DNA of 64,000 nt from Phocaeicola oris (GTDB lineage Bacteria > Bacteroidota > Bacteroidia > Bacteroidales > Bacteroidaceae), in NCBI RefSeq assembly GCF_021295095.1, contig NZ_JAJLQX010000002.1:62001-126000 (forward strand), read 5' to 3'. Both the position numbers and the translations under genes were made by a program. Shown here one piece after another: positions 6,882 through 33,974 of the stretch. The stretch's first letter is position 1, and each line of letters starts with the position of its first letter. Under the pieces are notes generated by a model. That model did no database searches. It saw only the letters and a list, made by a program, of their open reading frames with translations, and was not told the origin of the DNA.

Positions 6882-7023
6882 TACTGATGAGTTAAAAAAG
6901 CGATACGCATGAATTACCCAACTCATACGCATGACTTGACAAACTCATACGCATCATTCGATCAACTCATACGCATGAGTTGATCAAAACTTCTGATGAT
7001 TTAAGCAACTCATGCGTATCACT
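6882..7023. repeat. 22-bp palindromic repeat array A
   Basis: About six units, with cores such as CATACGCATGA recurring at a 22-bp period; units starting at 6919, 6941 and 6963 are clearest. The unit at 6963 is nearly a full palindrome (AACTCATACGCATGAGTT). The array fills the gap between the convergent barrel gene (+) and S37 peptidase gene (-). It belongs to the same family as the arrays at 12544, 24791 and 33821. Confidence 0.8.
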
Positions 7024-8319
7024 TCACTCGTTCAACCAATCATTGAGCAAATTCTTAATCTGTGTCTGCTCCTTCTCCGGCATTGTTCCTATTCGGGTTG
7101 CATGACATCCGCCATCTTGAACAAATATGTGTAAATTCTTTTTATGTTTTAAATCCAGCCATTGGAATACCCCCGAAGCAGACCATGGGTCAATGCTGCC
7201 ATAGATATAAATCATCTTCGGATCGTTCTCTTTCAAGAACTTAGTAACCTTTTGGGCAACGGCCTTATCGAACTTCACCCCTTTTAATTCATCGGGTAAC
7301 ATCAGTCGGTTAACCCAACCTTTTGCCGATTTCAGGCGCAAATACTTTTTAAAAGGCTTGGTATCGTATCCATAATAACCAAGTTCTTTGGCCGCTTGAA
7401 CAAAGAAAGACTTGAAATAGCCTTCACGATTAAAGTTCGACGGATCAGACTGTTTCATCCAGTGGTCAAATATTTCCTTATCGGATGCCGTAACAGCAGG
7501 AATCTTATCCATGGTAACTCCCCACTGCCAAATAGCAAACGAGTATTCCAATACACAATAGTCGTACAGCTCATCTAAAGGAACCGAATAAGACAGTTTT
7601 TTATCGGCGATATACTCATCGAACATCGGCTGAAGCGTAGCACGCCGCTTCAGAACTTCCAACTGAAAATCCTGCACTTTCTTTCTATCCTCAGCTGTCG
7701 ATACATTATTGATGAACGGTTCATGACGCCCATCCTCTATTCCGTAATTCAACGGAGCAACATAAGGCACGGAAATATCGACATCATCCGGATAGAATGT
7801 ACGATAAAACATCGTAGTTTGTCCGCCTTTGCTGATACCTGTCGCTATCCATTTATTCGGATAAATAGCTTTAAAAGCATTTCGGACAGCATGTAAGTCA
7901 TCCACCGACTGCTCAACTGTCAGGTACTTCCAGTCTTTTGGTTGCGGAGTAGACTCTAAGAAATAACGATACTCTACTACAATTAAATTTGTATTATAAA
8001 GCTTTGAAATTTCTTCTTCATACTTAGGCCTTTCGGCATACATGGCTCCATACCCTTCAGTCACAATAACTGTTGGGCGATCGAAACCACGATGCATCAC
8101 ATACACCCGTTGAGTAAATGTACCCATCGCAGGATTCTTGTGATCGATAGGTTGTACGAAATAAGTCACATACTTCTCAGGGAAAACCGTTGATTCCAAA
8201 GGCTTGAACTCTTTTATCTCCGACATGGTTGAAAGTTTGTCTTTCAGCATATTCTGTGCAGAAAGCACACTGCAAACCATCGCCAACACGAAAAGTAAAC
8301 CAAATTTTATACTTCTCAT
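7024..8319 (-). CDS. Secreted S37-family peptidase (PS-10 type aminopeptidase)
   Basis: A 431-residue alpha/beta-hydrolase peptidase. The signal peptide is MRSIKFGLLFVLAMVCSVLS followed by AQN. The nucleophile elbow GISKGG carries the catalytic Ser. The Asp is probably in YGSIDPWSASG and the His in DGGCHATRIG near the C-terminus. Family members are secreted tripeptidyl or prolyl-type aminopeptidases. The longer frame starts at 8349, but the -7 element at 8347-8354 lies over that codon and the signal peptide begins at 8319, so 8319 is used. It is monocistronic, downstream of the gcvT terminator. Confidence 0.85.
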   Translation of the reverse strand: MRSIKFGLLFVLAMVCSVLSAQNMLKDKLSTMSEIKEFKPLESTVFPEKYVTYFVQPIDHKNPAMGTFTQRVYVMHRGFDRPTVIVTEGYGAMYAERPKYEEEISKLYNTNLIVVEYRYFLESTPQPKDWKYLTVEQSVDDLHAVRNAFKAIYPNKWIATGISKGGQTTMFYRTFYPDDVDISVPYVAPLNYGIEDGRHEPFINNVSTAEDRKKVQDFQLEVLKRRATLQPMFDEYIADKKLSYSVPLDELYDYCVLEYSFAIWQWGVTMDKIPAVTASDKEIFDHWMKQSDPSNFNREGYFKSFFVQAAKELGYYGYDTKPFKKYLRLKSAKGWVNRLMLPDELKGVKFDKAVAQKVTKFLKENDPKMIYIYGSIDPWSASGVFQWLDLKHKKNLHIFVQDGGCHATRIGTMPEKEQTQIKNLLNDWLNE

Positions 8320-12301: not shown

Positions 12302-12543
12302 CTAAAAAACTTCGGCTTTCACGAACCGATTTAAGAAGAAAATTAGCATCTTTTGAAGACCTTTTTCTAATGTGTTAATACAAAATATTTTAGCAATAAA
12401 ATAATAATTATTCCTATTCGGAATAAGGTAACTTAACATCAAATGAATTATTCAATAGTGTTAATGACATATCCTGCAAGCGCAAAAAAAGTTCTGGAAA
12501 AATCAGCCTTATCAATTACTGCTTCGATATATAAGAATGTGAA

Positions 12544-12653
12544 AAGTGATACGTATAAGTTCTCGTTTTCATCAGAAGATTTTCTCGTTTCACTTATGTG
12601 AAACAAACGAATGACGCGTATGAGTTAAGCGATTCATACGGATGACTTTTTTC
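12544..12653. repeat. 22-bp palindromic repeat array B
   Basis: Five consecutive 22-mers starting at 12544, 12566, 12588, 12610 and 12632. The first four end in CG. The units have diverged (GATACGTATAAG, CATCAGAAGAT, CACTTATGTGAA, GACGCGTATGAG, CATACGGATGAC) but the period is exact. The array lies in the 463-bp gap between the recQ-like stop and the PurF-like promoter. The rest of that gap is AT-rich and featureless. Confidence 0.75.
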
Positions 12654-24685: not shown

Positions 24686-24790
24686 TGGCAAATCACTTCA
24701 AAACTCCTACCTGAAAGTATGCTAAACACATACAGATATTTTTAACAAGATGTCTTTCAGACCTTTAATGCCGATATATACAATCGAGTA

Positions 24791-24922
24791 AACTGATACG
24801 TATGAATCATTCAATTCATGCGGATCAGTTGCTCAATTGATGCGGATGAGTTGCTCGATTCATGCGGATGAGTTGTTCGGTTCATGCGGATGAGTTGTTC
24901 AACTGACGCGTATCAGTTTGAC
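24791..24922. repeat. 22-bp palindromic repeat array C
   Basis: Six consecutive 22-mers starting at 24791, 24813, 24835, 24857, 24879 and 24901. Inner units share CATGCGGATGAGTTG; outer units carry GATACGTATGA and GACGCGTATCAG. The two ends are inverted copies of each other (AAACTGATACG at 24789-24799, rc at 24908-24918). It lies in the 455-bp gap between the permease and the Crp-type gene. The rest of that gap is AT-rich, with only the Crp promoter recognised. Confidence 0.85.
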
Positions 24923-33820: not shown

Positions 33821-33974
33821 CAACTCATACGTATGAACAAGTAAAGTGACGCTGATGAGTTGGACGATTCATGCTGATGAGTTGGACGATTCATGCGGAT
33901 GAGTTGAACGATTCATGCGGATGAGTTGAACGATTCATGCGGATGAGTTGAACCGTTCATACGTATCAGTTTAA
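33821..33974. repeat. 22-bp palindromic repeat array D
   Basis: Seven consecutive 22-mers from 33821. Units 4, 5 and 6 (33887, 33909, 33931) are identical, and unit 3 differs at only a few bases. Inner core is CATGCGGATGAGTTG; the outer units carry CATACGTATGA and CATACGTATCAG. First and last units are near-perfect reverse complements, matching at about 16 of 18 positions. It lies between ribH and the tRNA-Tyr promoter. The rest of this gap is AT-rich. Confidence 0.88.

What the first reader, a model, noticed from the sequence alone, without database searches (positions are those of the whole stretch)
24791..24922. A dispersed family of intergenic arrays with an exact 22-bp period
Four gaps (6882-7023, 12544-12653, 24791-24922, 33821-33974) hold 5-7 units of a 22-mer built around the near-palindrome TSATRCGKATSA with AACT/AGTT flanks. 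All are in gaps beside unrelated housekeeping genes. There are no spacers, no cas genes and no coding potential (22 is not a multiple of 3). The 22-bp step is two helical turns, which would put every palindrome on the same DNA face, as expected for a protein-binding array. A REP/BIME-like family, a nucleoid or condensation site, or a 3'-end RNA structure are possible. I do not know of a described equivalent.
Basis: seen in the sequence. Interest (0 to 1): 0.7.

Follow-up and report, generated by a model that had tools for sequence, protein, structure and literature searches.

The report
Phased 22-bp dyad arrays between genes
This gut bacterium carries an estimated two hundred short DNA arrays between its genes, each a row of mirror-like sites repeated every 22 letters (two turns of the helix), and other Bacteroidales carry arrays with nearly the same spacing but unrelated letters, which suggests that the spacing rather than the sequence is what is kept.

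Summary
All four arrays exist. The same family occurs 32 times in 462.7 kb of this Bacteroidales MAG (about 206 per genome by extrapolation). Neighbouring dyad axes lie exactly 22 bp apart in 285 of 297 pairs. A second, different dyad (GTTTCACnnnnGTGAAAC) sits in the same register. In intergenic samples of 55 other Bacteroidales genomes, tandem arrays with periods of 17-60 bp are mostly 21-23 bp (40 of 45). Between species their units are no more alike than shuffled sequence. Variable positions of the dyad do not covary, and array ends lack T-runs, so RNA hairpins or terminators are unlikely. No RAYT domain was found. Some arrays sit in a MITE-like chassis. An IS3-type element abuts an array at 11 of 11 right ends, against 3 of 10 left ends with even one dyad nearby; 9 of the 11 junctions share one lattice phase. 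Best reading: a helically phased lattice of DNA sites, probably protein-bound, that also serves as an IS target. The close rival is a selfish minisatellite whose unit length is merely inherited. Nearest relative in print that I found: the BrickBuilt MITE of Porphyromonas gingivalis.

The parts
6896..7027 (+). array 1: dyads at 6901, 6923, 6945, 6967 (22-bp steps), a CTTCTGATGA tail unit, last dyad at 7010 (43-bp step)
12542..12650 (-). array 2: family-1 dyads at 12547, 12612 and 12634 with decayed middle units
12587..12604 (.). family-2 dyad GTTTCACTTATGTGAAAC inside array 2; its axis is 22 bp from the neighbouring family-1 axis
   Evidence: axis arithmetic from the sequence
24790..24920 (-). 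array 3: six dyads at 24794, 24816, 24838, 24860, 24882, 24904
33821..33973 (-). array 4: dyads at 33825, 33869, 33891, 33913, 33935, 33957 (44-bp then 22-bp steps), plus the 33847 position decayed

Best explanation
The arrays are DNA-level lattices: 3-8 dyad-like sites whose axes are held 22 bp (two helical turns) apart, so that all sites face the same way. SHOWN: the lattice, two different dyads sharing it, recurrence of a 21-23 bp period with unrelated units in other Bacteroidales, absence of pairing covariation, carriage of some arrays by a MITE-like chassis, and in-phase insertion of an IS3-type element beside arrays with one end facing them. INFERRED: the lattice is occupied in the cell by a dimeric DNA-binding protein that oligomerises along one face, the IS inserts at the edge of the occupied stretch, and the protein's target letters change from species to species while the geometry stays. 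The protein is not identified.
For: Axis distances up to 48 bp: family1-family1 22 bp in 285 of 297; family2-family2 22 bp in 42 of 56; mixed pairs 22 bp in 14 of 33, no other mixed distance above 3. Intergenic tandem periods of 17-60 bp: 24 of 27 are 21-22 bp in 25 congeners; 13 of 14 in 10 species of other genera of the family; 3 of 4 are 22-23 bp in 20 other families of the order. Five Markov shuffles together gave 4 of period 21-22 for genus and family. E. coli (23.3 kb intergenic) none of period 17-60. Unit similarity between species equals shuffled units (0.516, 0.506) but is higher within species (0.609, n=24 pairs; 0 of 2000 permutations reach it), 43 arrays in 26 species. In 183 internal units pairing across the axis is at or just below expectation at 8 of 9 positions (4 of these nearly invariant, so uninformative) and avoided at the ninth, 0.06 against 0.30. 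All 132 exact cores in 462.7 kb lie in arrays, none solitary. IS3-type element: 11 of 11 right-end places abut an array; axis-to-junction distance mod 22 is 5-7 in 9 and 16 in 2; 7 of 10 left-end places have no family-1 dyad within 40 bp.
Against: No binding protein, occupancy or expression data. Unit length could simply be inherited: five chassis copies with closely similar left arms carry 2, 3, 4, 4 and 5 family-2 dyads, and G065 and G011 differ by 43 bp in one array. IS specificity may lie in the transposase, as reported for IS1397 and ISKpn1 (PMC1525189, passages read). Only 15 of 39 genus and family units are palindromic at p<=0.05, and 0 of 4 at order level. Of 12 other species with two or more arrays, several (G005, G069, G084, G106, most pairs of G023) hold units no more alike than chance, so one family per species is not general.
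Confidence: 0.5

Rival explanations
1. Selfish minisatellite and MITE without host function: a mobile chassis spreads arrays, slippage or unequal exchange copies whole units so that the period is inherited while letters drift, and the IS3-type transposase recognises the dyad (or the end unit) directly, as IS1397 does with REPs.
For: MITE-like chassis with inverted ends; unit-number variation between similar copies and between two related species; adjacent internal units more alike (0.820) than units of other arrays (0.744); IS3-family precedent for palindrome targeting (PMC1525189, passages).
Against: The period stays 21-23 bp while unit sequence between species is at chance level; different dyads share one register (descent of one dyad from the other within the array could explain this); chassis arms are detectable at only 9 of 32 arrays, plus one weak hit, although array cores remain intact (biased, since arrays were found by their cores).
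Confidence: 0.36
2. RNA element: transcribed arrays form hairpins that end transcription or protect mRNA 3' ends.
For: Three of four window arrays fold better than dinucleotide shuffles (z -6.65, -4.35, -6.04; the fourth -0.64); in tandem gaps arrays lie nearer the stop than the next start in 20 of 25, 13 of 18 in the unbiased sample.
Against: No covariation at the variable positions and avoidance of pairing at one; mirror units hardly more complementary (13.98 vs 13.53); first and last units of one array not more complementary than those of different arrays (13.35 vs 13.69). T-runs at 15 of 64 array ends against 0.216 of background 25-mers. 5 of 32 arrays lie in divergent gaps.
Confidence: 0.06
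3. REP/BIME-type family: either RAYT-mobilised, or of the CGTC-tagged kind that lacks a dedicated transposase.
For: Intergenic, palindrome-like, more than 100 copies by extrapolation, beside an IS3-type element; CGTC-tagged REPs are reported in Bacteroidetes and lack a dedicated transposase (PMC3733652, passages).
Against: No Y1_Tnp (PF01797) match in the own genome while 5 of 14 control genomes match; no conserved GTAG or CGTC tag in the internal-unit profile; gapless head-to-tail units; no hairpin covariation.
Confidence: 0.03
4. The arrays are made by, or are part of, the IS3-type element and are scars left where it was lost.
For: Every right end found (11 of 11) abuts an array.
Against: At L255 the left flank is the chassis leader cut at its first unit, i.e. 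insertion into an existing element; a 3-bp target duplication fits (6 of 10 left 3-mers find a right partner; 3, 1, 1 for shifted controls); by extrapolation arrays far outnumber the IS.
Confidence: 0.03

Closest known systems
BrickBuilt MITE / 23-nt minisatellite of Porphyromonas gingivalis (PMC4596501; abstract and passages read)
   Same: Same order (recalled); intergenic; gapless tandem units of 23 nt, 1 to 22.8 copies; leader and tail with small inverted ends; dispersed (19 forms in ATCC 33277). The paper also mentions 22-, 23- and 41-nt tandem repeats noted earlier in strain W83.
   Different: Its unit consensus (AGAYCATARTATCCTCTCRTRTG) is unlike ours and shows no strong dyad by eye; its TIRs match IS5-family ISPg elements, while no partner transposase was found here in the little that was examined; our family is much denser by extrapolation, holds two dyad types in one register, and most arrays have no recognisable arms.
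REP / BIME and REPINs (PMC3733652, PMC1525189: passages read)
   Same: Short extragenic palindromes in high copy; species-specific families; IS3-family elements among those that target them.
   Different: No RAYT domain and no GTAG/CGTC tag found; gapless 22-bp head-to-tail lattice; no pairing covariation; the IS lies mostly at an array edge with one end facing the array.
CRISPR arrays
   Same: Repeated, partly palindromic units in an array, some with a leader-like arm.
   Different: No spacers; units are contiguous. cas genes were not searched for.
Operator or iteron-type arrays (recalled)
   Same: Repeats near two helical turns apart, bound on one face.
   Different: About two hundred dispersed intergenic copies by extrapolation; no cognate protein known.

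Membership tests
REP/BIME (RAYT-associated) | REP-associated tyrosine transposase (Y1_Tnp) in the genome | tested here: not met
   0 matches in own genome (95% complete); 5 of 14 controls match
REP/BIME | unit maintained as a hairpin (compensatory changes) | tested here: not met
   no excess pairing at the variable positions (4 of 9 pairs nearly invariant and uninformative), pairing avoided at one
REP/BIME | GTAG or CGTC tag at one end | tested here: not met
   internal-unit profile, shows no such conserved tag (read by eye)
BrickBuilt MITE | AGAYCATARTATCCTCTCRTRTG 23-nt unit | tested here: not met
   units here are 22 bp with another sequence; compared by eye with the consensus in PMC4596501
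BrickBuilt MITE | leader and tail with inverted ends round a gapless minisatellite | tested here: met
   for the chassis-bearing subset only; leader motif with at most 1 mismatch in 16 of 52 elements
MITE | terminal inverted repeats, dispersed copies, no transposase inside | tested here: met
   inverted ends about TTAACGTGAGTTCGATGAAATAA, read by eye in the better-preserved copies; 38 leader matches, 40 of 56 candidates scored
MITE | target-site duplication and a partner transposase with the same ends | tested here: inconclusive
   TTAA-like junctions make a duplication ambiguous (by eye); no TIR-sharing transposase in three weak-hit loci; no genome-wide test
CRISPR | unique spacers between repeats | tested here: not met
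   axes 22 bp apart without gaps
CRISPR | cas genes | not tested
   no search made
ParB parS sites | TGTTTCACGTGAAACA (recalled consensus) | tested here: not met
   no match with at most 2 mismatches in 462.7 kb
Intrinsic terminator | hairpin followed by T-run | tested here: not met
   T-runs at 15 of 64 array ends, as in background (0.216)

The most novel reading that the evidence does not exclude
Bacteroidales chromosomes carry a class of intergenic nucleoprotein lattices defined by geometry rather than sequence: dyad-like sites every 21-23 bp on one helical face, bound by fast-evolving DNA-binding proteins whose target letters differ between species. IS3-type insertions at lattice edges act as a natural footprint of occupancy.
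Probability: 0.33. Interest if true: 0.87.

Novelty: new variant of a known kind. Interest (0 to 1): 0.68.

Why it matters
A repeat class whose period is nearly fixed while its letters turn over points to a structural constraint on DNA and would be an unusual bacterial parallel to length-conserved satellites. It suggests a protein to look for in abundant gut bacteria, gives a ready pull-down bait, and shows an insertion sequence that uses such arrays as oriented, mostly edge-placed landing sites.

Tried and rejected
Considered and rejected or left open: RNA hairpin or terminator; RAYT-driven REP; parS; regular chromosomal spacing (CV 0.76 on C22, within the random range 0.60-1.27; CV 0.52 on C11, below the random 5% point of 0.67, so some evenness is possible there); orientation relative to transcription (17 opposite, 8 same in 25 tandem gaps, suggestive only); solitary sites near a regulator gene (none). 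The G029 hit is a single unit without an array. A typed consensus array gave only chance-like hits in 8 relatives (best E 0.066). The one genome-contig scan went to the recQ-like protein: five named relatives at 60-62% identity (Candidatus Bacteroides MAGs, uncultured Bacteroides, uncultured Mediterranea) and one distant Saprospiraceae hit; a DNA pattern would have been a better use. The genus name Phocaeicola is my recollection from genome sizes, not a tool result. One search printed about half of its loci on the wrong strand; one search repeats them.

Dropped or merged rows: overlapping TRF rows were collapsed to the best, and two rows of one G023 gap remain counted apart; periods under 17 and over 60 were left out of the counts given; own rows of period 33, 41 and 44 (7) are not counted as 22; some order-level stretches are very short (two under 1.3 kb). 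In one search, 48 of 52 elements had genes called on both sides. In one search two 20-bp-only left matches (L263, L264) were left out, and L249/L250 are one place. In one search, 3 of 16 fetched loci had no leader hit.

Full report
WHAT IS THERE. The four arrays were read directly and found by TRF or a dyad scan. All exact dyad matches of the window lie in them, on either strand reading (15 and 7). The window is part of contig 22 of a 2.98-Mb, 50-contig genome. In 462.7 kb of that genome (contig 22 except 2 kb, and the first 220 kb of contig 11) there are 32 arrays of at least three dyads; six mononucleotide shuffles gave none. All 132 exact cores in this DNA lie in the arrays. That is 69 arrays per Mb, about 206 per genome by extrapolation. 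Arrays have 3 to 8 recognised dyads, most often 5 or 6. The 32 lie between called ORFs, two with end overlaps of 2 and 36 bp: 18 in tandem gaps, 9 convergent, 5 divergent, against 16.0, 6.4 and 9.6 expected from intergenic length. In tandem gaps 13 of 18 are nearer the stop than the next start, 20 of 25 in a larger set. Gene calls are greedy ORF calls.

ANATOMY. In 52 elements (287 units) the internal unit is asymmetric at its edges: AACTCAT on the left, RRTTCAT on the right. The outer half of the first and of the last unit tends to AAGTGAT. Axis distances are 22 bp in 285 of 297 family-1 pairs within 48 bp. A second dyad, GTTTCACnnnnGTGAAAC, forms its own arrays (22 bp in 42 of 56 pairs) and lies 22 bp from a family-1 dyad in 14 of 33 mixed pairs, no other mixed distance exceeding 3 (loose scan with chance matches). 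Window array 2 holds one such dyad. Some elements have arms: a leader ending TCATAAAGAGA with at most one mismatch in 16 of 52, and left and right arms with inverted ends near TTAACGTGAGTTCGATGAAATAA in better-preserved copies. A leader query gives 38 matches, 40 of 56 candidates being scored. Of 16 further loci fetched from that list, 13 have a leader profile score of 12 bits or more; 12 of these carry dyad units after the leader and one (L224) does not. Five copies with closely similar left arms carry 2, 3, 4, 4 and 5 second-family dyads. Among the unbiased 32 arrays, arms are detected at 9, plus one weak hit.

OTHER SPECIES. A DNA query with array 3 finds nothing in 35 congeners except one single unit in G029, so the letters are not shared. 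TRF on intergenic DNA tells more. In 25 other species of the genus (144 kb intergenic) periods of 17-60 bp are 21 (8), 22 (16), 24 (2) and 41 (1). In 10 species of other genera of the family (70 kb) they are 21 (1), 22 (12) and 32 (1), with a further array at 65. In 20 other families of the order (34 kb) they are 20 (1), 22 (1) and 23 (2). In all, 40 of 45 are 21-23 bp. Five Markov shuffles together gave 3 (genus) and 1 (family) of period 21-22. E. coli (23.3 kb intergenic, a small control) gave none in this range. For 43 arrays in 26 species, unit similarity between species equals shuffled units (0.516, 0.506), while within species it is higher (0.609, 24 pairs; 0 of 2000 permutations). Within-species likeness is uneven: strong in G053, G083, G087 and three arrays of G112, at chance in G005, G069, G084, G106 and most pairs of G023. 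Of 39 genus and family units 15 are palindromic at p<=0.05, of 4 order-level units none, so symmetry is frequent, not universal. G065 and G011 differ by 43 bp, two units, in one array.

HOW IT WORKS. RNA pairing was tested in 183 internal units. Watson-Crick pairing across the axis is at or slightly below the product of column frequencies at eight of nine positions; four of these are nearly invariant and say nothing. At the ninth, pairing is avoided (0.06 against 0.30). Mirror units and first-last units are not notably complementary. T-runs are not enriched at array ends. Folding z-scores are strongly negative for three of four window arrays, but any array of near-palindromes tends to give that. 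The evidence favours a double-stranded DNA feature with independent half-sites.

AN IN VIVO HINT. An IS3-type element has 11 right-end places in the genome. Its OrfB piece matches the NCBIfam IS3 transposase at E=1e-32, below the curated cut-off, as a fragment would, and Pfam rve_3; OrfA matches HTH_Tnp_1. All 11 right ends abut an array. The distance from the nearest dyad axis to the junction, modulo 22, is 5-7 in nine and 16 in two (chance of nine in one three-position window about 1.5e-5 after free choice of window). Of ten left-end places, seven have no family-1 dyad within 40 bp, one of these (L255) ending in the chassis leader; three have one (L253, L257, L260). So the element lies mostly at an array's edge, with its right end towards the array, in lattice phase. 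Six of ten left 3-mers find a right partner, against 3, 1 and 1 for shifted controls, fitting a 3-bp duplication. IS3-family elements that target REPs are known (PMC1525189, passages), where the transposases themselves appear responsible. Edge preference is what an occupied interior would give, but recognition of the end unit by the transposase would give it too.

VERDICT. A geometry-locked lattice of dyad-like sites, probably protein-bound, is the best reading (0.5). A selfish minisatellite with inherited unit length is close behind (0.36). It fails the REP features tested. Nearest in build is BrickBuilt (PMC4596501, abstract and passages), whose paper also mentions 22-nt tandem repeats noted earlier in P. 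gingivalis W83. Ten literature searches (open-access PMC only, listings of at most 20 papers, some out of very many) showed no other equivalent that I recognised from titles and abstract openings. PMC7585543 (tandem repeats in Bacteroides fragilis) was seen in a listing only and could bear on this.

Noticed in passing
L239-L249 and L253-L262 (IS ends in the own genome): IS3-type element abutting 22-bp arrays at 11 of 11 right ends; 20 of its 21 end places lie within 1 kb of a contig end, so it breaks the assembly (the length of contig C17 was not seen).
   Followed up: partly
L198, L211, L214, L222-L233: A second 22-bp dyad family (GTTTCACnnnnGTGAAAC), whose halves resemble parS (recalled) but 4 bp further apart, in most of these loci, in the same MITE-like chassis and register.
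   Followed up: partly
window 39500-62000: Region with conjugative-element-like ORFs (a 2081-aa protein, a topoisomerase-like protein and others, judged from translations by eye) has no array of three or more dyads.
   Followed up: no
internal units, central four bases: Among 287 units CCGC (97), ACGC (58) and GCGG (40) are common while self-complementary GCGC (5) and CCGG (1) are rare, though ACGT (31) is not; restriction-site avoidance or half-site asymmetry could explain it.
   Followed up: no
L189 (order-level relative G053): Two arrays of one 23-bp family (CTCACAAGCTTGTCA...) show the class at another period in another family of the order.
   Followed up: no
L199: A tail unit around CATCCGCGTCACTTTTCATCTT is itself repeated at about 22 bp, seemingly a third unit type (by eye).
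   Followed up: no
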